DNA of 64,000 bases from assembly GCA_023078555.1 (NCBI GenBank), contig CM041199.1:3530513-3594512 (forward strand). Reading direction: 5' to 3'. Position numbers and translations under genes: made by a program. Below are positions 5,266 to 54,323 of the stretch, in pieces. Under the pieces are notes generated by a model, which saw only the letters and a program-made list of their open reading frames with translations, searched no databases and was not told the DNA's origin. This DNA is from Ulva prolifera (Eukaryota > Chlorophyta > Ulvophyceae > Ulvales > Ulvaceae). The first letter of the stretch is position 1; the number at the start of each line of letters is the position of its first letter.

Positions 5266-5307
<42 letters not shown>

Positions 5308-22983: not shown

Positions 22984-24858
22984 ATGGACAGCCTGAAAGT
23001 AGCATTGGACTGGGTGAGTTTGGAAGCTCGACTTCTCATTTCAAACCCATGGGAGGCGTGGTCGGAGTTCTGGGCTACGTTCGGCCCCGGGGGCAAGCTC
23101 CACCCGGGCTATCTGCTGGCGCATCAATATCATGTTGCGGTCGAGCTATGCCTACTTATAGCAATCGTGTATCTCCTCCTACAAAGTCGCGCGCCAGTGA
23201 AGCGATCAGCCGAGGCTCTGACGGAAGCGGTGTGATCACGCTCTCTGTGTTACCTGCCAGCTCTGAAGGTGTGTTGCGTGACCACGCACGTGCACGATCC
23301 TGCTAGACTGATCGCGCATCTGAAGGAAGTTGATGAGCTGGTGAAAGAATGGGAGCCCGAGGCGATGGTGCGCGAGACACCTGGTAAGTCAGTAAAAGTG
23401 AGCACTCCCGTCATCGATCGCGTCGTCGGGGCTCGCTGCACAGCAGATGGCAAGGAGAACGTGATCAACCTAGCATCTTGCAATTTCTGGGGTCTCTCAG
23501 GTGATACGGACATTCTGGTGCGTTCTGTTGTCGCACAGTGTGGACTTGAGCATTGTACATCCCAATGGCATCCTCTGACCGGCGTTTGGTCAGCATGCGC
23601 CAGATTCTGCATGGTCATGACCTCTCTAATATAGAAATATGGCCATAAGTCTCTTGAGGTAGCGGTGCTGCCCACCCGTGCTGCCTACCATCGATTGCGC
23701 TGCCCAACTTCTTGGCCTGAGACAGGTCTGAACACAGCGCCTATACCATTTATGAACGTCATCAGAATGTAGACAGTGCTGCCAAGCACCAGGAGCACGC
23801 GCCGTTTATACACCCGATCGCGTTCCGAGTGGCTGTGTTGCCCATCCCAAGCAGTTGTTCTTGATCCCATGCAGTATCTTCTCCTAGTTGTCTCCTTCAT
23901 CACAGGTTCACGGCAGTGAACATGTCTCTCCGGAAGTGGCATGCGAGAGTGCTTTCGTGCAGCATTCGACACGATGCATTATCAAGGTAAGTCCACACCG
24001 GTTGGCGCATGGAAGGACTGCATTCACAGCTCTCAATGCACATCCAAGTCCATGTTCACATCCCAGGCAACAACACCCTCACACCCCCAGCCACTGTCGG
24101 ACGCATCCATCTGCCATGCACTGTTTTTGCAGTACAGTCTGCCAAAGCCTAGTTTGTGAGAAATCGAAACTATGCTGCTGGTGCTGCAGCGGCCTCCCTC
24201 CCCCCCATCCTCGCCCCTACATCATGCACCATGCACATGCACCCATGTGCGATCGCGGTGAGTCCCACAGACATCCCCTCCCTTCTACCGCGGGTCCACT
24301 GACGCCCTCACGCCAATGCATGCGCATCCTTTCCCAGCCATTGCCACTCACTCGTTTGGCAAACGTGGTCCCAATCATCAGGAGTCGTCAGTGGCCGGTG
24401 ACGATACGGGTAGCCACATCCAGAACGACTACCTACTTTTACTTTGATCCACGCAGCAACACACAGTTATCATGATCCTTACATGCGGGACGTTGATGTG
24501 CAGGCGAAGAACACGGCGGCGCTGGCGCTGTACGGCGTCGGCGCGTGCGGCCCCCGCGGCTTCTACGGCACCATCGACGCGCACCTGGCGCTGGAGGCGC
24601 GGCTCGCCGCCTTCATGGCCACACAGGAGGCGATCGTCTACTCCTTCGACATCGCGACGATGCCCTCCGTGCTGCCGGCGTTTGCGTCGCGCAAGGACGT
24701 CATCGTCCTGGAGGACTCCGCCTCGTGGCCGCTGCGCAACGGCGCCTCCCTCTCCCGCGCCCAAGGTGCTGCCTCCCCCTGCAGCCACTGCCTTCCCCCC
24801 ACCACCGCTCGCCCCCCGCCCCCTGTCCAGCACCCACTGCGCCCCCCTGCCTAACTGC

Positions 24859-24898
<40 letters not shown>

Positions 24899-26497
24899 CC
24901 GCCGCTGCCTCCCGCCACAGCCGCGGCTCCCGCCGCCGCCCACCTCCATGTATTCCATCTGGATGCTGTCTTTGCGGCTTGTCACAGCTGATGGCCCTCG
25001 GGGTGTAGCCTGGGGTGGCCTGCCCTTTGTAGCTGGTGTATGCTGGTTGAGGATATGTTGTCTTGTTGTTTGACACAGTTTCTGTCGTCGCCACCGCAAC
25101 TGTGCACCGTATGTGGCAGGTTGGCACCCCTGCTTTCCTGTGGCGGTGCACCGCCTGGTCCCGGAGCGCTGCAGTGTTTTGGGGGCGGCGTAGCTGCCTG
25201 TCAGCCGTGAGGCCTCTTGCTGGTGCGGAGGCGGTCGCATTGATCCGGGCCCAGGCAGAGGGCTGCCGTGCCGCATGAGCCCGGGACCGCGCTGCTGTGG
25301 TCTGGACTATGATCAGGCGGTTTCCAGCCTGTGCCGAACATTCGCAGGTGCTCAGGCTGCGGGCCCGCGCGCGGCCGCAGTGCAACGACCGAGCGCCGGA
25401 ACTGCCGCCCTCGCCACCGCAAGCCACAGACATCCCTCCAGCACTTGCCTACGACGAGTGCATCTGCCGTTGGGGCACACTGCTGCGTAGCGACCCAAGG
25501 CCACTGCGCAGCTGCCCCTGAGCCACTCCTGCGGGTGTCAGCGTCATTCACACAAGCATCTCTTGCATCACACTGGTAGGCAGAGCATCCGTGCACGGCC
25601 AGAATGTGATGATGCAGACACCTCTGCCAAAACAAATTGAGAATGTGTCCACAGGTGATCACAGTGGCATGCGTGTGTGCAGTGGTCACCTTCCGGCGCA
25701 ACGACATGGCGGACCTGGAGGCCGCGCTGCAGCGGGTCGTCACCGCCGGCCGCAAGAAACCCCTCAACCGCCGCTTCATCGTCGTCGAGGGCGTGTCCGC
25801 GCACCGCGGCGACGTCGCGCCCCTTGCTGAGATTGCGGCGCTCAAGCGCCGGTACAAGTTCCGCCTCGCGGTGGACGAAACGCTGTCGTTCGGCGTGCTC
25901 GGGGCGCACGGCCGCGGCGCCGCGGAGGCGGCGGGGCTCGCTCCTGGCGATGCAGAGATCGTCACCGGCAGCCTCGGGACGGGGGCCGCATCGGCCGGGG
26001 GCTTCTGCGTCGGCTCGCGCGTGATGGTCGACCACCAACGGCTGAGCGGGAGCGGGTACTGCTTCAGCGCGAGCCTGCCGCCGGTGCTCGCGGTCGGCGC
26101 GGCGGCGGCAGTGGAGGCCTTTGAGGCCGGGCGAGAGGGGATCCTCTCGCGGGTGGCTGCGGCGGCGGCCGCCCTACGCTCAGAGGTGCGGCGCGTGCCG
26201 GGGCTGCGGGATCTTGCGGCCGGGGGGGCGGGGGACGGCATGGGGAGCCCTGTGGTGGTTGCGGGGCTGGCGGCACGGCATGAGCACGTGGACGAGGAGG
26301 TGGAGGTGTTGGCGGCGGTGCGAGAGGAGCTGCTGGCGCGGGGGGTGGCGCTGGTGGAGTTGCAGCGGCCGGGGGTGCTCGACACGGCGATGGTGCAGCC
26401 GGCGCTGCGGATGGTGGCGACGGCGGCGCACACGCCGGAGGACATGGCCGAGTTTGGGGGGGTGCTGAGGGAAGTGGTGGCGGAGATGGTGCGGTGA
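22984..26497 (+). CDS. LCB1: serine palmitoyltransferase subunit 1 (LCB1/SPTLC1)
   Basis: LCB1 is the non-catalytic partner of LCB2 in the PLP enzyme that condenses serine with palmitoyl-CoA, the first step of sphingoid-base synthesis at the ER. Exons: 22984-23229, about 23269-23500, 24457-24765 and 25683-26497; about 533 residues. Exon 1 holds one membrane segment (VELCLLIAIVYLLLQ). Exon 2 has EVDELVKEWEPEAM. Exon 3 has YGVGACGPRGFYGTIDAHL, keeping the Cys whose human equivalent is hit in HSAN1. Exon 4 has FIVVEGV, FRLAVDETLSFGVLG and DHQRLSGSGYCFSASLPP. The PLP lysine of LCB2 is absent, as expected. Phases agree at the last two introns. The first intron is 39 bp (or 96 bp if exon 2 starts at 23326). 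Exons 1-2 have balanced composition while exons 3-4 are very GC-rich. The 37-bp C run lies in intron 3. Confidence 0.93.
24860..24896 (+). repeat. 37-bp C homopolymer in LCB1 intron 3
   Basis: Thirty-seven consecutive C lie about 95 bp after the donor at 24766, preceded by other C-rich sequence. It resembles the G/C runs inside introns of the prolyl hydroxylase and MutS2 genes. True length is uncertain, as such runs are error-prone. Confidence 0.85.
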
Positions 26498-27348: not shown

Positions 27349-29448
27349 ATGTTTTCATGGCAATCCGCAATAGATAGACATCCAAGAAGTGGAAGGCAAC
27401 GAATCCATGAGTTTGCTCGCAAGGGCAATTGGAAATGGGTGCGCTCACCACGGTGTCCACAGACTGCAGCTGACCATGCAGCGCTGGCCATGCGCTGCCT
27501 GGCCACACAAGTTGCACAGTGCGGGAACTGGTTCTCCAAATTACGATCTGGATTCCGCAATACAATTGCTGTTCCGGATGGCCTGATTTGATGAGGCTTC
27601 ATTGCTTGCTACTCCGCTACTCCATTCGCTGCTGGACTGCGCAGGGCCAGGCATAATCGTACTTAAGCCACAGCCCAGCTGGCGCTTGTAGGTGAGGAAG
27701 CTGATAAATCAAGGTGCTTCTATGAACTCGTTGGATCGCTTTGGCTTTACAGCTCTCCACCATGCGGTGCTTAGCACAGACCTTCAGACGGTACTAATGT
27801 GCCTGCCTCGTGACTCTCCCATTGGTGAAGCAACTGCGATCACCCATGTTGCCCGAGATCGCACAACAGCTCTCCATCTCGCCACTAAGCTGGGTATGGT
27901 TAAGGCTGCCCATGCAATCATCGACTACGCTGACTGGATGGTGTGCCTCTAGTGGACAGGTCTTCTCAGGGCTCGATGCATGCAAGAATGTCAGCAAAAC
28001 CGCTCCTGTAATTTCGATTATCCCAGTGATAGTCTGCTGCACTACCTGATTGTCAGTGCTGCACAGACTCGCTGGGGTCGGCTTGCCCGTCTGCCTGGCC
28101 TGGAGGGCTTGGAATTCCATCATGCTGGACAACGACTAGACGCACTCAGATCAACTCCTGATCAATTATAGATGGGCCACTGGAAGGCACAAGGCAACCT
28201 CGGTATTCTGTGATACAAGGCCGCCAGTCTGCATGATCGTTGCTTAATGAATGCATTACCTCTGTGACCTCGCCCAGACTCTCACATGACACATTTCCTC
28301 TTGCCTGCTTACGTTTGGAGCATCGTCCAGCCTTGAATGCTGCTTCAGGCCGTAGACAGGCGCACATGCACACCGTTGTCTAGCATGGCGTTCTTACGTA
28401 CTCTACTCACAAAGCGTTGCTTGGTAGTATGTTCTGGTGCACTGCCATGCAAAGCCCTGCCCCTTTGCACTTTGTACCGCCCGTGCGGCGGCTGCGGTGG
28501 TGCAGAAAACACCAACCCCACCTCTCGCGTTGCACACAGGTGGAGTGCGGGGTGATGGAGGTGTGGGAGCGGCAGGCGCTGCTGGATGCACGCACCCTCG
28601 ACGGCAAGACCGCGCTCGCGATCGCCACCATCCGCGGCTCGCTGCAGATCGTCAGCCACCTCGGGGCCTGCGGCGCGACCGCCGACACGCCCGACGCCGT
28701 CACCGGCAGCGCCCCCGTGCATTGGGCCGGTGCGCCACCACCGCCCCGCGGACTTGCAAATGCATGCACAGGCCCCCTCCGCCGCGCCCCTTGGCAGGGC
28801 CGCGTCTGCTCGCAAGCGGATGACAGCATGCCTTGCGTTTGCCTTACAGTTGTGGCCCTGCGCTGCATTGGGTACTCAAATGAATGATGTAGTGGCAGGG
28901 TTATGCGCGTGCTGCCTGTGCGCATGTACGCCGGAAACTGCGGGCGGCACAACGCTTCACATAGACGCATGTTTATTCGCATGTCTTTCCTTTGAGATAT
29001 GTTGCAGCATGGCCCTGGCATCACCAGAGATCGTTCAAATGCCAACTTACACATGCATCCAGGCGTTCTTTCACGGCGTAGCCCTGGCTCCAATCCGTCC
29101 AGGGGCGGCACAGCTCCGGGTAGTATGCCCTTGCCGGTGTACTTTGCCGCGGAGGCCTGGTTTTGCCGGCGGAATCAATCGTGTGTGTACCCTGCTTAGC
29201 ACAAGTGCCTGGAACGTGCAGAGCGGATGAACGACAAGTCGTCGATGCGGCTGCTGCTGGCGCACGGCGCGGACGTCGACGCCATCAACGGCGCCGGCCG
29301 CCGGCCGCTACAGGAGCTGGAGGCGCTTAAGGAGTTCCGTGGTGTCGGCCGCCACAACATCCGTGCCGCTAACGTCACCAAGTTTGCGTACGAGCGCAGC
29401 GCCGTCATCGTGGACGCGCGCTACAAGCAGCAGCTCATCATGATCTAG
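27349..29448 (+). CDS. small ankyrin-repeat protein
   Basis: Four exons join with consistent phases: 27349-27438, 27692-27940, 28540-28729 and 29222-29448, giving 251 residues. The join of exon 1 to 2 recreates an ankyrin helix (RIHEFARKGNWKW then VRKLINQGASMNSLD). Repeats follow: FGFTALHHAVLSTDLQTVL, RTTALHLATKLGMVKAAHAI, DGKTALAIATIRGSLQIVSH, then SAPVHWAERMNDKSSMRLLL with AHGADVDAINGAGRRPLQ. The C-terminal 40 residues (VGRHNIRAANVTKFAYERS to QQLIMI) lie outside the repeats and I recognise nothing in them. Ankyrin repeats mediate protein binding, so no specific role can be given. There is no signal peptide or membrane segment. Exons 1-2 have balanced composition and exons 3-4 are strongly GC-rich. 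The start at 27349 is the only in-frame ATG before the first repeat. Confidence 0.82.
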
Positions 29449-31656: not shown

Positions 31657-32139
31657 CTAGTGCGACGTCAGCGAACGGATCTCATCAAAGAGGTTGAGGA
31701 ACCCTGCACGCTCGCGGTTCACCGCATAGCACGGCAGGTCCTCGCTCTCGCATGGCTCGCATGCATTGCATGCCAGGCGGCATGCGCCGTGTGTGAACTG
31801 GCTGCCGGTCATATAGGTAGGGTTGTTGGAGCACTCCCCGGCGGCCGCCCACGTCGGGCAGCGCTTGTCCAGATCGGCGCAGAAGCCGGGGTCCGGGGGG
31901 GCCTGTGGAGGCTGCTTACCCTTCACTGCTGCCTTCAGGTTGTCCGCTGCATGCCGCGCCTTCACTCAATTATGACAACTATCACAGCATTGGAGTTTGC
32001 ACCTTGAGGGCGCACATGCATGGTCCGCATGCATGTGTCGGTGGTCGAGCGGATCCTGCGGGACGACACCCCTCGCAGAATCTCTAGACATGCAACAGGT
32101 AAAACTGTGTGTGCATGTGAGGTGAACGGAGCGGTAATA

Positions 32140-32170
<31 letters not shown>

Positions 32171-34600
32171 TTACGGCGCCAGGGCTCCGGGTGGATCCAG
32201 ACGGGCGCCGACCACTTGGTGCCGCGGATGACAGGACAGGCCGTGTGCGTTGCGGCGACGTCGGCGGAGCCGTCAGGCAGCTGGTCGAAGAAGAGCAGCG
32301 CGGCGCCGCGCTTCGGCTTCAGGCCGACGTGGCCCTGGGCACACGGCGACGCGTCCGCGAGGCCGGCCGCAAGCGAGGGGTCCAGCCACGTGCCCTATAG
32401 CCACGCTATATTTTTCCAGGTTCCTTCTACTTCGTGAGAGTGCGCTGTGAGGCAGGAGGCACACGCGGGGGGTTGGCTATCTCTCATATGTGAGCGACGC
32501 ACTTCGACGAGTCGATATGTGATTACAGAGGAGCCAACGGGAATAGACTGACACAAGAACGGAATCTCGTCCGAATCAAAAGCGAGTCGGGAAGTGGCCT
32601 GCGGGTGGCGGCCCCATGCCATGTTGCACATGCATCGCGTGGAGCACAGGGCGCATATGCGTGAGCCACCGTGGGCTCAACCGCCCGAGGAGCAGCTGTG
32701 GATAGCACGCGGCAAGCGCGATGCCACGACGAGACACAGCTGTGCCCTGCGCCATTGCAAGCAGTACTACTCGATGGTTTACCTAGCACGCCGCGATTCG
32801 CAAGAAGGACTCCGAGGGGTGGCTATTGGGTAGATCCAGGAGTCCTGAGAGCTTCCGACAAGGGGGGTGTATGTCACATACCGTTAACATGACACTCTGC
32901 CGGTGACATCCATCCATGGCAATTGTAATTAATGATGACAATGCTGTCGACTCAAGAAAAGCAGAGACCTGCCTGGTGCTCGACCTGCTGCGTTCATTGC
33001 GGGAATCACTTTGCCACCCGTGGCCACAGGCTCTGTGGTTGTTTTGTTGCTGTGTGTTGGTTGATTTGTGTATTTGCTCTGCCATACAATGGCCCGAGAT
33101 GTTGTAAGTTGGATACAGTCAATCTATTGTGACTGCAACGAGTGGGTCCACCTTGGCAGGTGGGCAGGAGAGAGGGAGGTACCTGCGGGAAGATGGTTTC
33201 GCCGCCGTACTCGGGCTCGTTGAGGTACATGAGGCACGTCGCGAGCCGCCCGAGGCCGTCCATGTGGGCGCCGTACTTCTGGCCGTCCACGTACCGCAGC
33301 ACCTGCACGCAGCACGCAGCATGGCCCTTCGCCTTCACGGCGGCACCCGCCCCCGGCATGCTGCCGCGCACCGCGAGCTGCTGTGCGGGGGAGGGGCGCT
33401 ACGGAGTGCTGTACGTGGAGCTTCACGAAGAGCAGACAGAAGTACCACAGTGATTATATGCAAGTGGGGCTGAATGAAACAGCCCATTGATGTGACGAGG
33501 GTCCAGAGATCAAGGATCCGGAAATCTATTACAATTGGCGACGAGGCAAGGCGGCGGGGGAGAGGGGGAAGGGGGCGTGAGCTCGTACCTGCATGTCTTC
33601 CTGCTGGACGACGGTCGTGTTGCTCCACGCCGCGATGCGCTGCTCGATGGCTGCAAACGTCTCGTCGCGCATGCGTGGGACAAACATGCCGTAGGAGGTG
33701 CGGATGCTGTCGATCGCGCCGGCGCCGCCCTTGCCGACGACACTGCTGCGCTTCATCTGCGGGGCGGCCGTCTGCACAGCACACAGCGCGGGTTGGACTG
33801 CGGCCAGGGAGTGGACACGTGTGAGCCATGCGCGATGGGTGCGATGAGTTGTGGAATGCCTGGGAAAGAAAGTACACTTCAGCTGGGTTGATTGTGGCCC
33901 TGCAGGAGCCGATAGCTAGCTATCTTTTGGCGACAATGAAGAGAGTGAAGAGACTGGAGCTCTATTGGAGCTGTATTTCCCAATCCTACAGAGCGAATTT
34001 ATATTTACTTTACTTTACAGAGCGAACAGACTGAAGCAAGGTCCATCCACACGAGGTCAAAATTCCCCTTCACTGGCACACGGTGTTCATGTGCTGAAAC
34101 ATCAGCCAGAGCTCTATTTGAGTCCCTAACATCGCTGCGCGGTGCTCTCTGGGCATACACGAGAGCTTCGCTGTAGGGACTGTGACTGACTGACTTTGAC
34201 TATCTCATTGATCGGCGTCATCGAAGCTAGTCAGGGGCAGGAAATGTTCCCAAAAGACACGCAACTCGATGAACAGGGCATGCAAAGACGGAGCAAAGCT
34301 TGCTGTTTCGCTGCGTCGTTCAACAATGTGGATCAGAGTTCACACCTCCAGGATATGGTCAACCTCCGCATCTGAGAGAAAATTATAGTAAACGAAGGCC
34401 TTCGGACTCTCTGAGATTTGCACGACGTATGGCTTTTTCCGGCTCTCGTCAAACTCGCCGAAGACGAGGCCCTGGTCGTAGTTGTCGCCCAGCCAGCCGA
34501 TCAGGCTCTCTTCTTTCTCGGGCGCTGGCCGCATACCGCTCACCGAGACCACGCCATGTAGCAGCGACAGAACAGACAAAAAAGCTGCTGTGCGGACCAT
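31657..34600 (-). CDS. prolyl 4-hydroxylase with C-terminal ShKT domain
   Basis: An Fe(II)/2-oxoglutarate dioxygenase that hydroxylates proline in secreted proteins such as wall hydroxyproline-rich glycoproteins, in ER/Golgi. Exons (minus): 34600-34346, 33771-33589, 33302-33183, 32394-32175 and 31946-31657. All phases agree; 355 residues. Residues 1-21 form a signal peptide or anchor ([20 protein letters not shown]). Exon 2 has [20 protein letters not shown]. Exon 3 holds the iron ligands of the HxD motif ([10 protein letters not shown]) and [20 protein letters not shown]. Exon 4 holds the distal iron His and the 2-oxoglutarate Lys ([19 protein letters not shown]). Exon 5 adds a six-Cys ShKT domain ([20 protein letters not shown] to [11 protein letters not shown]), as in plant and algal enzymes. 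Exon 1 has balanced composition and later exons are GC-rich. Intron 4 begins GTAAG followed at once by a 29-bp C run on the coding strand. Confidence 0.92.
32141..32169 (+). repeat. 29-bp G homopolymer at an intron start
   Basis: Twenty-nine G on the plus strand, so 29 C on the coding strand, begin one base after GTAAG at the 5' splice site of prolyl hydroxylase intron 4 (32174). U1 pairing therefore borders a homopolymer. Length should be confirmed. Confidence 0.85.
32521..32592 (-). repeat. family-2 retroposon copy in an intron
   Basis: On the minus strand it reads TTTTGATTCGGACGAGATTC, CGTTCTTGTGTCAGTCTATT, then CCCGTTGGCTCCTCTGTAATC, the family-2 order with substitutions. It lies in intron 3 of the prolyl hydroxylase gene (33182-32395). 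Confidence 0.55.
33061..33107 (+). repeat. family-3 retroposon fragment in an intron
   Basis: TTTGCTCTGCCATACAATGG followed by CCCGAGATGTTGTAAG matches family 3. It sits in prolyl hydroxylase intron 3. A GTTTTGTTGCTGTGTGTTGG stretch directly upstream is shared in kind with the reversed copy at 62521-62580, so the element extends to about 33037. Confidence 0.55.
33987..34026 (+). mobile_element. extreme 5'-truncated SINE insertion with 11-bp target duplication
   Basis: TACAGAGCGAA at 33987-33997 recurs exactly at 34016-34026. Between them are only 18 bp, TTTATATTTACTTTACTT, which match the 3' tail of the family-1 SINE (AGATTTACTTTACTTTAC). This is an insertion in which reverse transcription stopped almost at once. 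It lies in prolyl hydroxylase intron 1. Confidence 0.7.
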
Positions 34601-36452: not shown

Positions 36453-36738
36453 AGTAAAATAATATAAATCTGGATTACTTAGCCGATCCCTTTGAAAGAC
36501 GTTGACAACTCTGAACGGACGGCCCACAGATCGAAGGGGTGAACCACCTGGAAAACCCCTCAGACGACCGTACGCAACTCGCAGGGCCTCCTTCTGTGCT
36601 AGGCGAGGCGGTCACGTACAGCTGTTTCAAATCCCCAGGCCAAGGCCTTGGCGCAAAAGCGCACGTAGACTCGTACCCACGGCCTCCTGAAAAGCAGGTG
36701 GTAGCTTTCATACTGTCCTCAACCCATTGGACCAGATT
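36453..36738 (-). repeat. full-length tRNA-derived SINE (family 1), copy 1
   Basis: On the minus strand the element starts near TGGTCCAATGGG (36736-36725), which fits the pol III A box TRGCNNARYNGG with one mismatch. About 45 bases later GGGTACGAGTCT fits the B box GGTTCRANYCC loosely, and CCTGC...GGAGG lies between like an anticodon stem. The body follows (GTGACCGCCTCGCCTAGCAC, GGTCGTCTGAGGGG, CCAGGTGGTTCACCCCTTCG). It ends GGATCGGCTAAGTAATCCAG and a TTTATATTATTTTAC tail. It aligns along its length with 37898-38170. The element is non-coding and would need a LINE partner for mobility. Confidence 0.75.
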
Positions 36739-37897: not shown

Positions 37898-38170
37898 TGT
37901 AAAGTAAAGTAAAGTAAATCTAAATTTACTGAGCCGTATCCTATTGGACATTGACAACTCCGAGTTAACGGGACCACATATGCCGAAGGGGTAAACCACC
38001 TGGAAACCCCCCTCAGACGACCGTACGCAACTCACAGGGCCTCCTCCTGTGCTAAGCGAGGTGGTCACGTACGGCAAATTCCCCAAAGCACACGCAGAAT
38101 CGAACCCACGACCTCCTGAAACGGAGGGGGTAGCTTGTAATCCGTCCTCAACCCATTGGACCCATTGTTG
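37898..38170 (-). repeat. full-length tRNA-derived SINE (family 1), copy 2
   Basis: On the minus strand: GGTCCAATGGGTTGAGGACG (A-box region), then GGTTCGATTCT at 38106-38096, a near-perfect B box. The conserved body follows, then GTTGTCAATGTCCAATAGGA, TACGGCTCAGTAAATTTAGA and a TTTACTTTACTTTAC tail at 37912-37898. The tail is a pentanucleotide repeat. TGTTG occurs on both flanks and may be the remains of a target duplication. The tRNA-like head does not fold as a complete modern tRNA, so it is annotated as a SINE, not a tRNA gene. Confidence 0.8.
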
Positions 38171-38331
38171 TTGCAAAGCGATGTTGCAACGAATCGGATG
38201 CATCCACATGTCATCACCGCTTGTTTGTCGGACGAGGGACGACTCCATCAACATGCAGGGCATGAGGTCCCTGTCGTGCTGCACTATGGGGTGCATGTAC
38301 ATACGTATGTCATATATATAACATTTACATA

Positions 38332-38412
38332 TGTACAAGTAGATCTGAATGTACTGATCCGTATCCTGAAGAGGACATTGACAACTCCGAATCAACGGGA
38401 CCACACTTGCCG
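38332..38412 (-). repeat. 3' fragment of tRNA-derived SINE (family 1)
   Basis: GTAGATCTGAATGTACTGAT, CCGTATCCTGAAGAGGACAT and TGACAACTCCGAATCAACGG on the plus strand are the reversed family-1 3' end. The copy carries the subfamily variant CTGAAGAGG where copy 2 has CTATTGG. Confidence 0.7.
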
Positions 38413-43119: not shown

Positions 43120-46100
43120 ATGGTAGTTCATCGTGTAGATTTCCAGGCCTGCCACTCTGGGCTGCGACACTCGCTCGTGGCTCAGCGATGGCGTTCCCCT
43201 CGGGTCGCAGTGTGTCCTCCCGCGGCAAGGCAAGTCAAAATTCATGCAAGCTCAGCAAAAGCAGTTAACCTTGAGGATGTAGACTGGGACAATGTGGACT
43301 GGGACACCTATGATTGGCGGGACTACGTCGATGATGCCCCCGGGCCAGCCTTCCAACACACGCTAAAAGCCCTCGAGTGGGAAGCTGTGTGCACACAGAT
43401 CTCCTCCTTCGCATCAACGTATGTAGGAAAGAAGCGATGCCAGAGTCTGGAGATCGGAAGAACGCTCGACCGTGCGATGGTGCGCACTTAGTCTCGTCTG
43501 GGAAAGCTTTGGGACAGCGTCGCCGTTGTCGTTGCTTCCAAAAAGCATACAGTGGATTGTGTATTGCTTATACAGCCTACTTGTAAACACTTCATGCGCA
43601 TTCTGCAGACATTACAGCGAGAGACGAAGGCAGTGTCAGTGCTGGAGACGCAGCTGGCTACATCGCTGGACTTTGGAGGCATCAGCACGGACGCAGCAGA
43701 GACAGCACTCCGGCGTGCAAACAAAGGTGGCATACTCACAGGTGAGCTGTGCCAGGGCGTTGCCACGCTGATTCTCGGCGCCCAAGGCATCCAGAGCACC
43801 CTCAGATCAGCCCGCACAACAGCTCAGGGAACAGCCCTTCTGCAACAAATCGAGGTCCTGGTCAACCCGTACGCCCCCGCCTACCACCTTGTGAGCCTTG
43901 CCTTCCTATCTTGACACATGCAGCATCCAGCACGCGGTCGACTCGTCCGCTTCCTCTCGACCTCACATGCTGGTGCAGTTGGTGCCTGTAGCAGTTCCTC
44001 GCCCAACCACCACCGCGCTGATTCCGCTCTCTCGCTCCATATCCTACGCGTCTCTCCCAACAGTGTTCCACTGTCACGTCCTTGGGCCGTGTCCACAGGC
44101 TGTGACTCTGCATGTGCCTGCATGTGCACCCACTCCCCGGGCCCCGATGAGCAGGGGTCAAATGCATGTGCATGTAGCGTCCGTGCCAGCTCTCGGCACA
44201 GCCAGCGGCAAACCTGCTGACCTCGCCACAGATGTGTGCATGCACATGCATTTGACGCACATGTGTGCGTGCGGTTGGCCGGGGGCCTCGACACCACAGG
44301 CAGAAAGCACCGGCTGACCTCACCACAGCGCACACCCGCCACCTGCCACTGCAGGCTGATCGGGCATGACGTGCCGGCGGAAATCGCGCGGGCCGTGGCC
44401 GCCGCGATCACCGAAGCCGGCACCGTGAAAGACTCCGCGAGCGACGCAGTCAAGCGCACCCGCGCCCGCGTCGCCACACTGGAGGGGCGGCTGCGCGCGA
44501 TGCTGAATAAGCGCGAGGGCGGAGAGGTGACGTCGTTTCGGGGGCGCATGTGCGTCGCCGTCGCGCTAGGTGCGTGCCGCGCTGTGTACGCTGCGCTGTG
44601 TGCGGAGGCGCAGCACGGCAGCACCGGCTGCCGCGGATTTCCCCCCTCATAAGGCTGCCAGCGATACCAGGGGGTCAGCGTACCAGCAGAGCACAACCCT
44701 GTGCATCGTATCGTAATGCAGCAGCCCCCCCCACAGTCAGCAGGCGTCGCTGGCTCTGATGCCACGTGTGCATGCATGCCGAGGTTCAGCTGTCCAGTGT
44801 AGCGCGTGCTATGTTCCAGAGTCAGGGAAGCGCGGGCACCGCTCCTCCCCTTGATAAACACATCGGTCAGGGATCCCCCACTGCCCACCGGCCAATCTGG
44901 CTAAGGGGCAGTGTCCATGTATCCCTTCCCGCAGATACCTCGTCTGCGCATGTTATGGCTCCTTGATGCATGCTCACCATGCGTGCGCGATCTTGAGATG
45001 TCGGGGAGTCTTGCAGGGGAGTCCAAGGGCACCGGCGTCGTCCTCGGCAGCGGTGTGGGGGTGCAGTATGTAGAGCCGGGGGCCGCAGTGCCGCTGAACA
45101 ACGACCTCGCGGCGGCGCGCGCCGAGGCGCTGACGGCGGAGGAGGCCGTGCTGTGGCAGCTCACGGGCCTTGTCATCGACCATCACGCTGAGCTGGCGGG
45201 CCTGCTCGCGGCCGTCGTGTGGCTCGACGTCGCCTCCGCCCGCCACCGGTGCGTGCTGCGTGTGATTTGCGTGCTGTGCATGCTGTGGTACAAGGGCAGA
45301 GACGGGGAGGCAGGTAGCAACGCGTGAGCTGTATGTGCTGCGCACGCCGTGCGGAAGGTGTCATCACGCCACCGAGATTGCTGTCAAACTCGGTGTCCGC
45401 CGTGAGAGTCACACGCACGGATTGCCGTGAGTGTGGAGGTGTATGGTACACTCTCAATCAAAGTGTCCTGCGAGTGTGATGCAGCCAGACTGCGAATGTT
45501 GTGCGTATGCATGCAGGTACACGGAGTGGTTAGAGGGGACACACGTCGAGTTCACCGCATTTCCGCGGGACCTGCCGCGCGGCAGCGCGGGCGCACGCGG
45601 TGGCGGTGCCGACGGGGGGGCCGCGAAGCTGCGCGCGGCGGCCATGGCGGAGCCGGGGCAGGGGCTGAGCAGCGACGAGGAGGAGGAGGAGGAGGCCTGG
45701 GTGCTGCTCAAGCGGCTGCGGCACCCGCTGCTGCAGGGCTGGTACCTCGAGCGCATGGCCAAGTGGCGGCGGCAGCAGGTGCGCCCCCAGCAGCCACTCC
45801 ATGCATGCCTCCCGCCCCCGGCATCAGGCTGCATCTGCGCTTGCCTGTGAGGCCGACCTGTCACGACCTTGTGTGACCATAGCGGGACCTCGTATAAATG
45901 CCGACTGTGTGTGGGTGTGCCCTGGTAGCCATGAGAGAGGTGCTCCCAAGCTATTCATCTGCACTATCGACCAGGTGGGTATCTCGACGGCGTTTGTGCG
46001 CCGATCACGCGCCACAAGGGTCGCTCCACACAAGAGTCGAGCTGATGGCATGCTGTGCGTGCTGCGCAGAATCAGAAGGCGCCGAAGGGCGCCGCCGCAA

Positions 46101-49100
46101 AGGCGGCCGCGGCGGCGGCGGCGCTTCCGAAGCCCGAGCCCGTTGTGCCGATCACGTGGAAGGTGGGCCACGGGGTGCGGTCGGTGATCATCACGGGGCC
46201 CAACACCGGCGGCAAGACGGCCGCGCTCAAGTCGCTCGGGCTGAGCGTGCTGCTCGCGATGTGCGGCTGCGGCGTGCCGGCGCGGGCCCCGGCGAGGCTG
46301 CCGCCGTTCTCCGCCGTGCTCGCCGACATCGGCGACTCCCAGGCGCGCCGCCCGCCTCCATACCATTGCTGCTCTGTGTCGCCGAGCTCCATGCCATAGC
46401 TATCGCTTGTGGTTGCAGTGCTGAGTAGCCTGCTGTGGTGCTCCGGTATGCTGTGGTGTGCTGTGGCCCGAGCTTGCGAGGATTGCGAATCAGTCAACGT
46501 GGACATATCAGTTAGACCTTCGGATCGCTAATGATGGTTTCGATGCTGTGTTGTCTGTCCCTGTGTTGAGCTGTCATCTCGTGGAAGGGTGGAGGGGGTG
46601 CCGCCGCCGTCAGGGAGAGGCGGCCCCTGGAGGAGCGCGCTATAGCCGCATCGCCCAGTGCCTTGCCTCGCGATCTTCACGCGATCAGCTCCTCCAAACG
46701 AGCCGTTGACCTCTTCACGGTCCTTTAGACGAGCACGAGCTCATCACATCTGGAAATTCCACAATGATAGTGTCAAGTAGGTGTGCACGGAAGGCTGCTC
46801 AGCGGTCTCAACGTGAACCCCCCCCTTCCCCCCCCCCCCCCCTGGTTCCACCATGTGGTCAACACGCAACCATGCACCTGCTTCCATGTACGCGTCACAA
46901 CCGGCTGATAGCGCTGCATCACTGCGTCAGCCTCACGCATGCATGCCACCACATGTTAACACGCAGCGAGCTCGACCACGGCACTGCGCCTGCCACCCCT
47001 GCACGCCGCACAGCACCGACTCGCACCCCACCACCTGCGACATTCACCACCGGCACGCCTTGCGGGCCTGCAGCCGTGCACGAGCACACACGACGGCATG
47101 TGGTCCCGTTGATTCACAGATGTGTCCAATGTCCTCTTCAGGATACGAGGGTTTTGTGCAGTGTCCTCTTCAGGATACGACGCAGTACATCAAGATTTAC
47201 TTTACCTCACACATGCATGCGCCCCATGCAGGACCTCTCGGCGTCGCTGTCGACGTTCTCCGGCCACCTCCGCCGCATCACGGCCATCCGCGCGGAGGCC
47301 TCCGACGGCCGCGCCCTCGTCCTCCTCGACGAGGTTGGCACCGGCACGGACCCCCAGGAGGGCGCGGCCCTCGGCGCAGCGCTGCTCGAGCGCCTCGCGG
47401 ACGGGGGCCCCGGCGGCGCGGCGCTGACCGCCTCCACGACCCACATGGCCGCGCTCACCGGCCTCAAGTTCGAGGACGCGAGGTTCGAGAACGCGAGCGC
47501 GGAGTTTGACGAGGCGACGCTGTCGCCGACGTACCGCCTGCTGTGGGGCGTGCCGGGGCGCAGCAACGCGATCAACATCGCGGCGCGGCTCGGGCTGCCG
47601 CCGGACATCATCGAGGAGGCGAGGGAGCTCTGGGGGTCCTCGCAGGTGAGCGCCCCTGTGGCCACGCCCTCCCCCTCTGTGCAGGCATTGGGTCTGCCTG
47701 GGTTGACTCGCGGTTTCTTATGCATGGATGGGGCTCTTCCCTGCGATTAGGCGGGGCGGCTTCCGGACCCCTTGATGTGCGGCCCCAGTCTTCCCGGATA
47801 GCTCTGCCATGGCCGTGCCATAGGTGCCATACACATTGGCTTATACACCTCTGAAAACCAGTTGCATCCGTACACCTTTGTGCTCATCGAGGACGCTCGA
47901 TGAGCACTGCAGGCAGCGCCGACATGCATGCAGGCACACATGGACAGCCTCGTGGACGAGCTGGAGGGTGTGCGCGGCGACACCGAGGCCGCGGAGGCCG
48001 CCATCGACGCCGCCGAGGCGCGGCTGCGGCCCCTGGAGGCCGAGGTCGCCGCCGCGGAGGCGGAGGTGGCCGCGCTGCAAGCTGAGATCGAGGTCACGCG
48101 TGCCGCGATCGTCGGCTCCGCCATCGACGCGGCGCAGCGGCGGCTGCGGCGCCTGCTCCGGGCGCAGGTGCGCACGACCTGGCCCCTGGCCGCGCTGCGT
48201 GCTGTGCGTGCTGTGGCGCTTGCTGCGCGGGGGGGGGGGGGGGGGGAGCTCTGCGGAGGCGGGCGTAGCAGCGCCGCTGCCTGCTCGGTGCGAGGGGAGT
48301 CCCTGACACGTGAAGCGTAGAGATGTACATACAGCATTTACCGAGTACCGTTCTCAGTTAACAGGTTAGCCAGATTAGCTTGCGTTACATGGGTCTAGGT
48401 CTGAAAACTTTTATCTTTGTTGGATCAGTCACCCCGAAGAATCATGATATACTATACCTAGCTGGGTACCTAGAAAACGCAGCGTTACACGTTACATGTC
48501 GAACCTTTTAATTTAGTGCGGTAGTACCCAGTCGCACGTGCTGGACGATGAGGCGTTCCACTGGCCGTGGCTCGCGTGCACACCCCTTGTGAGGCTGGCA
48601 GCCACGGTCAGCGATCATCCAGACACATGCGCAATGCATGTGTGTTCCTGCTCACTCCTCATCACGTCTCGAGGCTTGAACCTGCAGACTGTGGCACCCC
48701 ACGTACCAACCCCGTCGCAGCGAGCCTCAAATCCCGAGAGTTCGGGCCCGGCCCTCGGCGCAGCATCACAGCCCGGCATGTGCCCTCACGCTGCCCGTCA
48801 GCGCATGCACGCAGCCCCGCACAGACACACAATTCTCACCATCCGGGCGGCGGTGTCACCCCGGCGGTGTGCGTGCAGGAGCAGGAGGCGAAAGCCGCAG
48901 AGGCGGCGGAGACGCAGCAGCGTGCGGTGACGGGCAAGCGTGCGAAGCGCGCGGCGAGCAACAGCAAGCAGGCACAGCAGCAGGCCGCGGAGCGGTGGAG
49001 GCCGGTGGTGGGGGAGGTGGTGGAGGTGCCGAAGCTGGGCACGAGCGCCCGCGTGGAGAGTGTCAAGGGGAAGAAGGTGACGGTCGGGTTTGGCCAGATG

Positions 49101-49142
49101 TCGATGACTCTGAACATCTCGGAGGTGTTGCGGACGACCTGA
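43120..49142 (+). CDS. MutS2-family ATPase, probably organelle-targeted, without Smr domain
   Basis: MutS2 proteins are ABC-type ATPases acting on branched DNA or collided ribosomes; plant homologues are plastid proteins. Nine exons: 43120-43479, 43609-43890, about 44329-44569, 45017-45248, 45517-45778, 46070-46342, 47232-47645, 47934-48167 and 48879-49142; about 853 residues. The basic, Ser/Ala/Arg-rich first 50 residues suggest a transit peptide. Then [20 protein letters not shown] (N-terminal domain), [20 protein letters not shown], Walker A ([18 protein letters not shown]), [18 protein letters not shown], Walker B ([20 protein letters not shown]), [20 protein letters not shown], a coiled coil (exon 8) and a KOW-like end ([20 protein letters not shown]). 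It stops there: the usual C-terminal Smr nuclease is missing. The exon 6 donor is GC, not GT. The start of exon 3 is uncertain. Exons 1-2 have balanced composition and the rest are GC-rich. Confidence 0.9.
47096..47212 (+). repeat. family-1 SINE fragment with internal duplication, in MutS2 intron 6
   Basis: TGTGGTCCCGTTGATTCACA to GATTTACTTTACCT is the family-1 3' end in forward orientation. TGTCCTCTTCAGGATACGA occurs twice (47130-47148 and 47162-47180), so part of the element was duplicated. The SINE tail ends about 20 bp before the 3' splice site at 47231. Confidence 0.7.
48362..48530 (+). repeat. dispersed repeat family 4, copy with empty site, in MutS2 intron 8
   Basis: The blocks TTACATGGGTCTAGGTCTGA, ATCATGATATACTATACCTA, GCTGGGTACCTAGAAAACGC and GTTACATGTCGA match 8978-9192 in order. 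CTATA at 48452-48456 is single here, but at 9072-9126 it is split by a 45-bp hairpin. A G18 run (48229-48246) lies upstream in the same intron. Confidence 0.75.
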
Positions 49143-49763: not shown

Positions 49764-52700
49764 CTACTGCCGCCGGTGGCGTTTCCTCTCGATGATCACA
49801 TTCCCCCAGTGAATGTCAGATTGCGGCGTGCGCTTCGGGTTAATTTTCGCGTTCACAACCTGTATGTCAGAATCGTCACTGTCGTTCGCGGCAGCGCACT
49901 CCTCTGCAGCCGCCGCAGCAACGCCCGGCGCATGTGGCACACTGCCGGCCTGTTGCGGGAAAGAATCACGCGTGTTTGCGGCACCGACACCCGCGCCCGG
50001 CGCGCGTGGCACACACTGGCGCCCAGCCGATCCGCTCGACGCATTGCCGACAGCAAGGGGCCCCCGGGCCTGCGCGGCTACGGCGGCACGGCCACTGCCG
50101 GCCGCCACATGTGACGGGGCCGCAGGCCCCGCCGACACGCCACCTGTAGACATGGACGCGGCCCGCGAGCAGCCGCCGGAGCCCGATGGCGACGGCTTCG
50201 CGCTGTCCCCCGAGAGCCCACGGCCCACACCTCCCACTTCTGAGCGATGCGCGGGCTCTGCCGGCCCACATCCATCCCCACCGATGCCCATGCCCCCTCC
50301 CTGACGTACCCCGCTAACTTGCTGCTCATTCTTCACTTCGACACGGGGGCCGGCAGACGCAGACGCAGGGGATGTTCCCGCCAGCTCGTCAGCTGGCACT
50401 TCCCCGGCTGCAAGTGTTGCAGCGCCCCTTCCGCTGGAGGCTAGGGCGGGGCGCGTCGGGGGCGGCGGCGATGGCGGCGGCGTGTCCAGGCCGCAGCCGG
50501 AAGCGTCATCGTCCGACGTGATGCCGGCGAGACGCCGCAGCCGGTTGATCATGGCGTAGGGGTGGTCCGTGGCAGCCGCGGTGCCCTCCCCGCCCTCGAG
50601 GCCCCCACGCGGATGCCCCTCGAATGGCCTGCTGTGGCCCCCGGCTGCGAGCGGCGGAGCCGCATCGACGCCGGGGTCGGCGCTCGGCTCCCGCAGCGTC
50701 GACGCGGTCGCACCGCCGTCGCGGGACCCCGACGCCGTCGCCGCCGCGCCATCCTCGAGGACGGTCGGCGTCAGCGACGGACAATCTGCAGCCGGGCTTG
50801 ACCCGCGGCTCCAACCGATGCCTTCGGCCCCACTGGACTGCCCTGCGGCACCCGCAGCAGATGCCTGTCTCGCGCATGCATGATCATCATGCATCATCAT
50901 GACCCCCCCTCCACCGAGGGCAACCCCTGGACTGCCCCGCCGTTCGGCCGACCACCCTTGAGCGGCTGACGGCCCGGCGGCCGGTGAGTCATGTGAGGGC
51001 CCAGGTTCCGGTGACGTGTCTGTATCTTTATCAGTACACGGCACAGTCGCCGCTGGGGCTACAGTCTCAGGATGCCGAAACCCCGCGCTGCCGATGCCGT
51101 CGTCCGCCCATGCCTCGATGAATTGACAGACAGCTTTGCGGTGTCCACTGCTCGACCCCGCCGGTGTTGAGCAGCCCTCTGTCAACCGCTCGGTGTCTCC
51201 GCCGCCGACGGACTCGGTCGCGGCGTGCGCGGAGGCGCATGCAGACTCCGCTGCGGCTGCTTGAGAGGCTGCTGGAGCCGCCACAGCAGCAGCTGCTGAC
51301 TCATTGCAGCGCGCCACCGCCTGTGGCGCGGGAGGGGGGTGGTGTTGTGGCGGTGGCGCGGCAGGGGCGGCACCGCCGCCTCTGAAAGCCGCGAGCGTTC
51401 TGGTGAACGTCTGGATCGTGAGGTCGAGGCGGCCCATGATGGAGTCGTCGTGGATGTGCGAGAGGACGACCACGGCGGCCTCAAGGGCCTTGACCTGCTG
51501 CCGGCTGGCCTGCCCTGCAGCCGGCACCGCGAATTCCTGCACACCGTCTCCATGTAAACTGCAAGTAATCTGGGCCGTTTACTGAGCCGTATCCTGAAGA
51601 GGAGACATCGACAACTCCGAATTAACGGGACGACATGCCGCTTGGGACAAAGCGTGTCCGTGTCATGATCGAGGCGCGTGGGTATTTGCCACACCGAGGG
51701 AGATGATAAAAAAAAAAAAAAACACACAGTGCTGGGTTATCGGGCCTGCTGTAGATACATGCAATGCAATGTTTGCTGCCCATTTCCATCCGAGTTTCTA
51801 CAGGTTACGCATGGCAGCCCCGGCAACGCTTCCAGGCGCCCCACAGCTGCCTACATGATGTGCCCTGTGCTTTTACGTACAGTCAATGTGCTGCATCATG
51901 CTGTGAATCGAGGACTTTCGGATGCAGTACTGCGCGTTGGGTTATTCAAGCGCGTTGGGTTGCTGACATGCACGGGGGCGGCAGAAGTGTATCATGATGT
52001 AGACTGCGGAGATTTGAGAACAGCGGAGGCCTGCGCGTGTATACTCTATACGTGGTTCTGGTGGTGCTAGGTGCTGTGATGGCACGGTAGATCCCCCTTG
52101 TGTGCCGTGGACGATGCACGGTTCCATGGCACCGCGCTCTGACGGCAGACACAGCATCGCGCCTTGTGCGAAGATGACACTTTCGAAGACCAGCTTCAAT
52201 TCCGAGAAATCCGCAATGTCCCACCGAGGAGCTCTGCATCGCCATGTTGAATAGAACAACTCATACACTGCCCAGGTGAATGAGCGCGTGGCTCGTCGAG
52301 GCAGCGCGGCACACGCGACTGCATGAATGGTGACACGATGAAATGGGCATCGGTACGGATCGCAGGAGGGCGGGGCGTACCATCATGAGCTCTTCCAGGA
52401 TCTGCAGCAGCTTCATGCATGTGGTGCTGAACGTGGCGGTGAGGCTCCTGCGCAGCCGACACGCCTTGAGGGAGTCGCGCAGGCAGTGGGCGATCTCGTC
52501 GCGCTGTTTCTCAAAGTACGCTTCGCCGTACTGGATCACCAGCTCCTCGCCCGGCAATGCGTCCTTGATCATCTCACCGGCCTGCACATACAGCTCGTTA
52601 GGCTGGGCACAGATGAGGTGGTTCACCCCTTCGGCATATGTGGTCCCGTTAATTCGGAGATGTCAATGTCCCCTTCAGGATGCGGCACATGCATTTGTGA

Positions 52701-54323
52701 ATCACTATACATACTATACATACATCATGCATTACTATACTATACATCATGACCCATCTGATGCCCATGGAGAAGCTGGGGGGTGGTGGGATATCCACAT
52801 CAATGTGGATATCCCACACGGCAGGTAGACTGCCCCAGTCCATTTAAGTGTACACTTGGCTAGGAATGGGCAGGCTTGGCGGAGTACATATCTGGGCCTA
52901 GCCGCATGGTGAGATCAGTCGACCTGGGATGAGAAAAACAATCCCAGTTGTACTACACATAGTATGTGAGGGGGCTGCCGCGCCAGCGAGCGCACCATGA
53001 AGAACTCAGCGCCTGTGACCTTCCCGTGGGCGTCGACGTCACACCGGACGCACGGCAGCATCCTCAGGTTCGGCTCGCGGCGCACGCTGCATCCGCGGAT
53101 CCAGGCGTCGAGTTGGCGCTCATCCGGGGCCAGCAGCTTTGCGAGCGCGGTGACGTCGCCGGCGAGTTGCGCGCCGAGCGCCTCGTCCAGCGTCGCGCCG
53201 TCGTTGAGGAAGCCGCCCCACGACCTTGGAGCCTCCTGGGCAGGTCTGCACTCGCGCACGTAGCTCACCCACAGATACCCGTGGAACGGTTGGCGGTTTC
53301 AGAGAGGTCGGTACTTTGGTAAGCATCTGCGTCCCACCAGACTGTCTGTCGCGTCAGCAACGTCCTGGCACGATCCTCATGCAAGTGCGGTATGCGGAAA
53401 CAAGTGGCGCAGACAGCGAGCCATCTGTCACCGAGCACACAACAATCCAGGATGTCAACACGGCCTCCCTCAACTAAGACGCATCGCCGGTGGTTGGAAT
53501 TTACGACGCTTGCAGGATTCGAACTCTGCAGGCACTGTCGGGGTTGTGCTGAAACGAGTGGAGCGGGCACCCGGAAACGATGCAGAGACGAGCTATGGCT
53601 AGAGCTATTGCGACAAAGGACACCCGCAGCAGAACGTGGGTCCTGGCCACTGCTGGGCTGTGAAGAGGCGCACGGGCTGCTGAGGAGGATCTCTGCAGTC
53701 CTGTTCTTGCTGAGGGGTATTTTCTCCGAGTACATGTATGCACATTGCCCCTGCAGACACGCTCGAGGTCCCGCCTGGCATGAGAGACGCAGCGTTGCAG
53801 ATGGAGTGCAGCAGACGGCGACAGACTGCATCCCCGCTTATGATTCTGAACATTGGTGCCACCTCAGCGCAAGCAGTCGGAGCAATGCTGATGTGAGGAG
53901 GCGATGCGGCCACTGCTTCCGTGCAGCAGCGGTGCCTGTGATACAGTGTTGGGTCGTCGGGCCCGATCGTATGTGACAATTCCGAATATTCAGGTCTAAT
54001 TTTGGGGTGGCAGCCCTGGAAATGCTGCAAAGCGACCCAACACTGCTGTGATGGCTGTCGAGATGTGCGCACCTCGCTTGGAGGAAACATCTTGTTGAAT
54101 CGTGTCTCCTCGCCGGAGGTCAAGGCATGCCCTTGATAGAGCATGGCAACTTGACCCTTCCTCAGGTGGCGCCTGGCATGCACGCTGTGGGACTTAGGCC
54201 GGCTGTTGTCCAGCTGCCCTAGGACGTAGGCGACCAGTCCCGGTGGCGTGGTGCGTGCGCTCAGCTGGATCTCCACATTTTTACGCACGCTATGTCTCGG
54301 GTCGCTCGACAGCAATCTGTAGA
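49764..54323 (-). CDS. SET-domain protein with long disordered C-terminal tail
   Basis: Likely protein-lysine methyltransferase. Minus exons: about 54323-54073, 53235-52996, 52581-52381 and 51536-49764, all joined in phase 0; at least 820 residues, true 5' end unknown. The SET fold is visible in order: SHSVHARRHLRKGQVAMLYQ (first strands), SWGGFLNDGATLDEALGAQL, EPNLRMLPCVRCDVDAHGKV with GAEFFM, then DALPGEELVIQYGEAYFEKQ, the conserved GEEL...YG end. The NHSC motif is replaced by GCSVRREPN, so activity is uncertain. After SET come two helical stretches (MKLLQILEELMM|EFAVPA, ALEAAVVVLSHIHDDSIMGR), then about 500 low-complexity residues. The tail ends acidic-hydrophobic (NDSDDSDIQVVN, possibly SUMO-interacting) and basic (ERKRHRRQ). 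A small exon may be missing between the first two. A frame at 55063-54800 (minus) could be an upstream exon. Confidence 0.68.
51572..51640 (-). repeat. family-1 SINE fragment in an intron of the SET gene
   Basis: TTACTGAGCCGTATCCTGAA, GAGGAGACATCGACAACTCC and GAATTAACGGGACGACATGC on the plus strand are the reversed family-1 3' end (CTGAAGAGG subfamily). It lies only about 35 bp upstream of the last SET-gene exon on the minus strand. Confidence 0.7.
52630..52690 (+). repeat. family-1 SINE fragment in an intron of the SET gene
   Basis: CCTTCGGCATATGTGGTCCC, GTTAATTCGGAGATGTCAAT and GTCCCCTTCAGGATGCGGCA read as the family-1 body in forward orientation, ending before the tail. Confidence 0.65.
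52786..52816. repeat. inverted repeat, 14-bp arms
   Basis: GTGGGATATCCACAT at 52786-52800 is followed by its near-perfect reverse complement ATGTGGATATCCCAC ending at 52816. It sits next to the SINE fragment, inside the intron between the second and third visible SET-gene exons. Confidence 0.8.

What the first reader, a model, noticed from the sequence alone, without database searches (positions are those of the whole stretch)
22984..54323. Genes switch from balanced-composition 5' exons to GC-rich 3' exons
LCB1, the ankyrin gene, the prolyl hydroxylase, MutS2 and, less clearly, the SET gene all begin with one or two exons of near-balanced composition and finish with exons that are visibly 65-75% G+C. 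The step falls inside single genes on both strands, so it is not a regional isochore. It is the reverse of the grass pattern, where 5' ends are GC-rich. Possible causes are GC-biased conversion limited to transcript 3' ends, retrohoming of processed 3' segments, or intron insertion tied to the GC-rich part.
Basis: partly seen in the sequence, partly recalled or inferred. Interest (0 to 1): 0.72.

Follow-up and report, generated by a model that had tools for sequence, protein, structure and literature searches.

The report
GC-poor gene starts, GC-rich gene bodies
In this green seaweed genome (probably an Ulva) many genes begin with compositionally balanced exons and turn strongly GC-rich about 1 kb in, the reverse of the grass pattern, which suggests that the process enriching DNA in G and C is kept away from gene starts here.

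Summary
LCB1, P4H, MutS2 and ankyrin step from GC3 0.53-0.69 to 0.86-0.98 (P4H's last exon 0.79). LCB1 aligns through all four exons to SPTLC1. The gene called SET steps too, but its identity was not confirmed. In Pfam-anchored genes elsewhere in this genome GC3 is bimodal: of 32 testable genes 23 rise and 9 fall from first to last exon, 8 rise and 0 fall by 0.2 or more, and no within-gene shuffle of 20,000 matched the trend. An ab initio sample of contig C1 alone is weaker: 9 up, 1 down at 0.2, slope permutation 981 of 10,000. In genes that switch, the change comes about 1 kb after the modelled start; inner and terminal exons are equally high, so it is no 3'-end effect.
The shift is 1.9-2.7 log-odds in all seven codon contexts tested: not methylation decay, not codon-specific selection. 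Introns shift only 0.33. Best explanation: a GC-biased-gene-conversion-like process, regionally variable, kept out of gene starts, weak in introns. Against it: introns barely respond, some genes stay low, and POLD1 has an internal low patch. A new polarity of a known phenomenon.

The parts
22984..23517 (+). LCB1 (serine palmitoyltransferase subunit 1) low-GC 5' exons 22984-23229 and 23326-23517, GC3 0.61 and 0.59
24504..26497 (+). LCB1 GC-rich exons 24504-24765 and 25683-26497, GC3 0.97 and 0.90
27720..27940 (+). Ankyrin gene, low-GC first modelled exon, GC3 0.53 (true 5' end not known)
28540..29448 (+). Ankyrin gene GC-rich exons 28540-28729 and 29222-29448, GC3 0.95 and 0.91
34346..34600 (-). 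Prolyl 4-hydroxylase first exon, GC3 0.69
31657..33771 (-). P4H GC-rich exons 33589-33771, 33183-33302, 32175-32394, 31657-31946, GC3 0.90 0.97 0.92 0.79
43258..43868 (+). MutS2 low-GC exons 43258-43479 and 43609-43868, GC3 0.62 both (N-terminus before 43258 not resolved)
44355..49142 (+). MutS2 GC-rich exons 44355-44569, 45017-45248, 45517-45778, 46070-46342, 47232-47645, 47934-48167, 48879-49142, GC3 0.86-0.98; the intron 46343-47231 was modelled as GC-AG
53674..54144 (-).
   Evidence: no Pfam support
49764..53245 (-). Same gene, exons 52996-53245 and 52381-52581 (GC3 0.87, 0.88) and long last exon 49764-51536 (0.70)

Best explanation
In this genome a context-independent bias toward G and C, of the kind GC-biased gene conversion gives, has acted on gene bodies but hardly on the first ~0.7-1.3 kb after the modelled start of the genes that switch. 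Shown: bimodal GC3; the low-to-high change inside single conserved domains; a similar odds shift in CpG and non-CpG contexts and at C- and G-ending codons; parallel shifts at codon positions 1 and 2; weak co-variation of introns and 3' flanks; some clustering among neighbouring genes. Inferred: that the bias comes from recombination repair, that repair tracts are kept out of promoter-proximal chromatin, and that introns respond little because they turn over (insertions, indels) or act as barriers, as proposed for rice. CpG decay is superimposed on both parts to a similar degree and is not the cause of the step.
For: Log-odds shift from low to high exons 1.86-2.69 in 7 of 7 contexts; most bootstrap intervals overlap, but the lowest (C/T-ending codons before G, 1.43-2.23) does not overlap that of A/G-ending codons (2.29-3.13). 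The classes are defined by GC3, so only the evenness of the shift is informative. 4-fold sites in high exons: C .48, G .43, A .05, T .04, nearly strand-symmetric; GC1 .58 to .66, GC2 .40 to .47; K/(K+R) lower in high exons in the five families with data in both classes. Intron GC correlates with flanking GC3 (rho .74, 81 introns; LL .50, LH .56, HH .60). HH introns are .67 just after the donor.54 some 80-105 nt in, then .57-.61; 3' flanks of high terminal exons .62 (4 anchored genes) and .68 (14 ab initio), of low ones .51 in both. The intron between POLD1's two internal low exons is .46; the gene's other ten are .52-.64. Genes in the same stretch agree. Four of the genes that were high throughout the fetched part had lower-GC3 predicted exons in the next 1 kb upstream; ACAS_N confirms them for one. 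In Chlamydomonas recombination is higher in coding exons than introns and lowest in UTRs, 5' UTR lowest (PMC7186780, passages).
Against: Introns in the high zone shift only 0.33 log-odds against about 2.3 in exons; a purely positional conversion process should move both alike. Several genes stay low through their matched 1.7-2.4 kb (L021, L024, L026, L038, L044). POLD1 goes high-low-high inside one domain. The slope over exon rank in the C1 sample alone is not significant (981 of 10,000). GC bias of conversion in Chlamydomonas is reported as weak (Liu 2018, as cited in PMC7186780). Between genes GC3 tracks intron length in the anchored set (rho .72, 38 genes), which the model does not predict, though not significantly in the window/C1 set (rho .24, p .11). 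A tenfold change of mutation bias would give the same evenness. No recombination map, polymorphism data or second genome was available.
Confidence: 0.4

Rival explanations
1. Selection on exon GC for splicing: exons between long introns must stand out in GC to be recognised (exon definition), and 5' introns here are short.
For: HH introns median 306 nt against LL 108; within genes GC3 depends on flanking intron length (t 3.0) as well as rank (t 3.4), n 138; 10 of 21 HH introns use GTGCGC donors (the gene finder's donor model itself favours this motif); the exon-intron GC contrast is large only in the high zone.
Against: GC3 in high exons of 240 nt or more is nearly flat.88-.94 from the splice site to beyond 480 nt (exons were classed by mean GC3), whereas splicing selection should fade with distance. 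Intron GC co-varies with exon GC. Low exons can have long introns (426 nt in POLD1).
Confidence: 0.25
2. Reduced linkage interference: long introns let weak selection for GC-ending codons work better in the 3' part.
For: Correlation of GC3 with intron length.
Against: The shift is not codon-specific and extends to positions 1 and 2 and to K/R usage. Plastocyanin, expected from general knowledge to be highly expressed, has GC3 of about .70 and .68 (the second stretch includes a few intron codons).
Confidence: 0.1
3. CpG methylation and deamination at 5' ends lowered an originally GC-rich sequence.
For: CpG over the codon 3|1 junction is depleted in low exons (o/e .60) and not in high ones (1.06); methylation of about 72% in CpG context is reported for U. 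prolifera (PMC12249963, passages).
Against: The shift is as large in non-CpG contexts (2.49, 2.29) as in CpG ones (2.46, 2.07, 2.60, 1.86), so CpG decay is shared by both classes.
Confidence: 0.06
4. 3' segments derive from reverse-transcribed RNA (retrohoming), or long introns are recent insertions tied to GC-rich exons.
For: Longer introns in the high part; 9 of 47 HH, 1 of 14 LH and 0 of 49 LL introns contain sequence repeated in the sample, although HH introns also offer 2.5 times as much sequence.
Against: High parts keep their introns; repeats cover 5% of HH intron length; composition is nearly strand-symmetric, with no A-to-G-only asymmetry.
Confidence: 0.04
5. Gene-model artefact: low exons belong to other genes.
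For: No RNA support was available; the C1 models are ab initio and some may be fused or split.
Against: LCB1, and single Pfam domains of chaperonins, aldehyde dehydrogenases, a tRNA synthetase and kinesins that run across the step.
Confidence: 0.02

Closest known systems
Step GC gradients delineated by introns in rice and Arabidopsis (Ressayre et al. 2015, PMC4684703; abstract and sections 16 and 21 read)
   Same: Change tied to introns, all codon positions and amino acids moved, introns GC-poorer than exons with a sharp contrast, bimodal GC among genes as in GC-rich species.
   Different: There gradients are U-shaped with steep 5'-3' decrease, inner exons low, and CDS GC falls with intron number (rho -0.62 in rice). 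Here the first exons are lowest, inner and terminal exons high, and no correlation with intron number was seen (rho -0.04, 48 genes).
Decreasing 5'-3' GC gradient at translation starts of eukaryotes (PMC9403032; abstract opening and passages read)
   Same: A position effect counted from the start codon.
   Different: That paper calls the decrease universal, mainly at nonsynonymous sites over about 100 codons, and lets synonymous sites go either way. Here GC rises, at all codon positions, after about 500 nt of CDS. Whether green algae were among its 259 genomes I did not see ('alga' and 'Chlamydomonas' have 0 hits in its main text).
Fine-scale recombination in Chlamydomonas (PMC7186780; passages read)
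   Same: Coding exons recombine more than introns; 5' UTRs least.
   Different: Differences are about 10-40%, hotspots are enriched upstream of genes, and GC-biased conversion there is reported weak.

Membership tests
Intron-delimited step GC gradient | Discrete GC3 change between exons, larger than change within exons | tested here: inconclusive
   15 rising pairs of 103.235 across introns against .035 within exons, but intron length adds genomic distance and several exons rise internally (L025, L039, L054)
Intron-delimited step GC gradient | All codon positions and amino acids change | tested here: met
Angiosperm-type 5'-high gradient | First exon richest in GC | tested here: not met
   mean of inner exons above first modelled exon in 12 of 14 anchored and 13 of 14 C1 genes, among genes that reach GC3 0.8
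Angiosperm-type 5'-high gradient | CDS GC3 falls with intron number | tested here: not met
   rho -0.04, p 0.81, 48 ab initio genes
GC-biased gene conversion | Context-independent, strand-symmetric AT-to-GC bias at all site classes | tested here: met
   in exons; shifts similar though not identical among contexts
GC-biased gene conversion | Adjacent introns affected to a like degree | tested here: not met
   0.33 against about 2.3 log-odds
GC-biased gene conversion | Correlation with recombination; polymorphism skew | not testable with these tools
   one genome, no population data
Isochore / regional composition | Neighbouring genes share GC3 | tested here: met
   136 of 5,000 permutations as tight, 33 genes in 13 stretches; a second layer that does not explain within-gene steps
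Introner-type intron gain | Introns share sequence genome-wide | tested here: inconclusive
   HH introns 5.3% repeat-covered, but searched only within a ~0.36-Mb sample

The most novel reading that the evidence does not exclude
In Ulva, recombination or repair-linked GC bias is directed to gene bodies and excluded from promoter-proximal DNA, a polarity opposite to yeast, birds and grasses. It starts near a chromatin boundary about 1 kb into the gene (perhaps an H3K4me3/H3K36me3-like switch) and acts on exons far more than on introns.
Probability: 0.3. Interest if true: 0.78.

Novelty: new variant of a known kind. Interest (0 to 1): 0.6.

Why it matters
Within-gene GC gradients are often read as footprints of recombination starting at promoters. 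A genome with large steps of the opposite sign makes that reading testable, because the same model predicts promoter-protected recombination here. The polarity would also affect gene prediction (low exons at gene starts are easily missed), codon optimisation for Ulva, and phylogenies that assume uniform composition along a gene.

Tried and rejected
3'-end-only effect: rejected, inner and terminal exons equal. Terminal-exon dip, suspected from single genes (L025, L028): not general. Methylation decay: rejected as the cause of the step. Codon-specific or translational selection: unlikely. RNA-editing or reverse-transcription asymmetry: none seen. Mass introner insertion: little support, weak test. 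Splice-enhancer selection confined to exon ends: GC3 nearly flat along long exons. Genomic versus coding distance as the determinant: undecided, coefficients of variation 0.50 and 0.56. SET identity: no Pfam match in the first 352 residues. My first window models of P4H, MutS2 and ankyrin had frame errors; they were corrected, and one search's numbers are not used.

Papers: the held library was searched, of which I saw titles and the start of abstracts. No hit listed there presents itself as describing a rising 5'-3' GC3 step in Ulva or another green alga; most subscription papers are not held, so this is not proof of absence.

Rows left out: of 131 matches fetched, 20 had stops inside and were set aside; 32 of 38 genes then had at least 2 clean exons. 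Not fetched: 2 of 41 TCP1 matches, 5 of 28 tRNA-synt_1, 1 of 12 Aldedh, 1 of 22 AMP-binding, 7 of 9 Aminotran_1_2, 86 of 121 kinesin and all 45 P450 matches. The ten kinesin genes were chosen before their GC was seen; three of the ten switch, the rest stay low. Upstream kilobases were fetched for four genes that looked all-high (L030, L032, L034, L041), not for others such as L042 or L046; in two of the four (L032, L041) the finder put the upstream exons into a separate predicted gene, and in L030 they are under 60 nt. One search's classes are from a subset filtered by hand in the script (29 genes: 19 switch, 6 high from the first exon, 4 all low; 13 of the 19 are ab initio).
Full report
What was checked. 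The window is part of an 88.9-Mb genome in 44 contigs. A plastocyanin gene in it encodes a mature protein identical over 98 of 98 residues to PDB 7pcy. That 7pcy comes from Enteromorpha (Ulva) prolifera is recalled, as the tool names only the molecule, and the splice junction used was chosen knowing the published protein, so this is a species clue, not proof. With a sampled GC of 57.9% on contig C1 against 57.2-57.3% for two published Ulva genomes (PMC9266709, passages), I take the organism to be an Ulva.

The window genes. I built spliced models by hand from conserved sequence and splice sites. LCB1, P4H, MutS2 and ankyrin read open through every junction; GC3 per exon is in the observation check. 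LCB1 aligns from its first, low-GC exon to its end with human SPTLC1 (6m4n), and the Arabidopsis LCB1 match (7yjk) covers residues 53-502, so its low exons are not another gene's. The SET gene shows the same step, but its first exons are only predicted and a SET domain was not confirmed.

Is it general? Pfam searches of the whole genome give exon-by-exon matches ordered along each domain, independent of gene prediction. I fetched 131 matches in 38 genes of six families on nine contigs. GC3 of clean exons is bimodal, with a trough at 0.70-0.75. Of 32 genes with two or more clean exons, 23 rise and 9 fall from first to last. Large changes are one-sided, 8 up and 0 down at 0.2, and none of 20,000 permutations of exon order reached the observed trend. 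Examples: an aldehyde dehydrogenase .59/.94/.92/.91/.98 (L037), kinesins .67/.59/.97/.98 (L054) and .53/.62/.91/.89 (L058). Many genes do not switch inside the matched part: some are low throughout (seven of the ten kinesins), some high throughout. For four of the high ones I added 1 kb upstream, and in each the predicted upstream exons have lower GC3. For one, an acetyl-CoA synthetase, they match ACAS_N; for another (L032) the upstream piece had no Pfam match; the rest were not tested.

Second sample. A self-trained gene finder on the window and 20 scattered stretches of contig C1 gave 43 multi-exon genes: 28 up, 15 down, at least 0.2 in 9 up and 1 down, slope permutation 269 of 10,000. C1 alone (35 genes) gives 22 up and 13 down, 9 up and 1 down at 0.2, but a slope permutation of only 981 of 10,000; later exons exceed the first at Wilcoxon p 0.013. 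So the large changes remain one-sided, while a steady trend over rank is not established there. Pfam supports two switching models: a Pyr_redox_2 oxidoreductase stepping .59 to .96 inside that domain, and eIF3g stepping .60 to .93 between its eIF3g and RRM parts. A clear exception is DNA polymerase delta (L009).68, then .93-.98, then two exons at .61 and .69 inside the same DNA_pol_B domain, then .87-.96; the intron between the two low exons is also low.46. So low patches can lie inside genes; the gene start is their commonest place in these samples, not their only one.

Where and how sharp. In 19 genes with a modelled start that switch (13 of them ab initio), the last low exon ends at a median of 568 bp and the first high one starts at 1,316 bp (midpoint 967 bp, interquartile range 709-1,308), after a median of 512 coding nt; 6 further genes were high from the first exon and 4 low throughout. 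Of 103 adjacent exon pairs 15 rise and 5 fall by 0.15 or more; in the rising ones the change across the intron (.235) exceeds that within exons (.035). Introns also add distance, though, and some exons rise internally, so a steep continuous transition remains possible. In genes that reach GC3 0.8, inner and terminal exons are equally high.

What kind of force. At third positions the odds of G or C rise by 1.86-2.69 log units from low to high exons in all seven contexts, CpG and non-CpG, C- and G-ending; the smallest and largest differ beyond their bootstrap intervals. The classes are defined by GC3, so it is the evenness that counts. CpG depletion is therefore superimposed on both classes, as expected if CG methylation is widespread (about 72% in CpG context reported for U. 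prolifera, PMC12249963, passages). Codon positions 1 and 2 and amino acid usage move in the same direction, and 4-fold composition is nearly strand-symmetric. This is what a uniform fixation bias looks like. A uniform change of mutation bias would look the same, but would have to be about tenfold and nearly confined to exons.

The difficulty. Introns between high exons differ from those between low exons by only 0.33 log units in non-CpG contexts. They are longer (median 306 against 108 nt), more often contain sequence repeated in the sample (9 of 47 against 0 of 49, but they also offer 2.5 times as much sequence), and their GC is slightly raised near the exons. Turnover of intron sequence or an intron barrier could explain this; neither is shown. 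Exon-definition selection is the main rival, weakened by nearly flat GC3 along long exons.

Relation to known work. Ressayre et al. (PMC4684703, abstract and sections 16 and 21) described step changes at introns in rice and Arabidopsis, with U-shaped gradients. The present pattern shares the anatomy and reverses the polarity, and lacks the correlation with intron number. In Chlamydomonas recombination is higher in coding exons than in introns and lowest in UTRs (PMC7186780, passages), which fits the direction but not the size of the effect.

Verdict. I favour a gene-conversion-like bias excluded from gene starts (0.40).

Noticed in passing
window 37918-38165; related pieces at 36556-36733, 37946-37985 and 38373-38412; by eye also near 42480, 47110, 51570 and 52640: A 250-bp interspersed repeat that looks tRNA-derived (SINE-like, by eye) with 1,732 first-look candidates in the genome, of which 40 were scored: the window copy and 39 others at 95-96% identity. 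One copy (C8:1828912-1829164) lies in an intron of a GC-rich AMP-binding gene (L042). ARAGORN and Rfam gathering thresholds found nothing in the window.
   Followed up: partly
window 46343-47231: MutS2 intron with a GC-AG boundary (donor GCGCGC), chosen to keep MutS domain V continuous.
   Followed up: partly
window 24860-24896, 32141-32169, 46828-46842, 48229-48246: C or G homopolymer runs of 37, 29, 15 and 18 nt inside introns of LCB1, P4H and MutS2; the one in P4H directly follows the donor GTAAG on the sense strand. Others lie at 5269-5304, 7727-7740 and 8468-8479.
   Followed up: no
L009 5794-6651: Internal low-GC3 patch (exons .61 and .69, intron .46) inside an otherwise GC-rich DNA polymerase delta gene.
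   Followed up: partly
38 anchored genes, L021-L058: Introns between high-GC3 exons are longer (median 306 against 108 nt) and often have GTGCGC donors, as if two gene architectures coexisted.
   Followed up: partly
L063 (C6:3831400-3832480): Plastocyanin, expected to be highly expressed, has GC3 of about .68-.70, unlike the strong GC-ending bias of highly expressed genes in Chlamydomonas (recalled).
   Followed up: no
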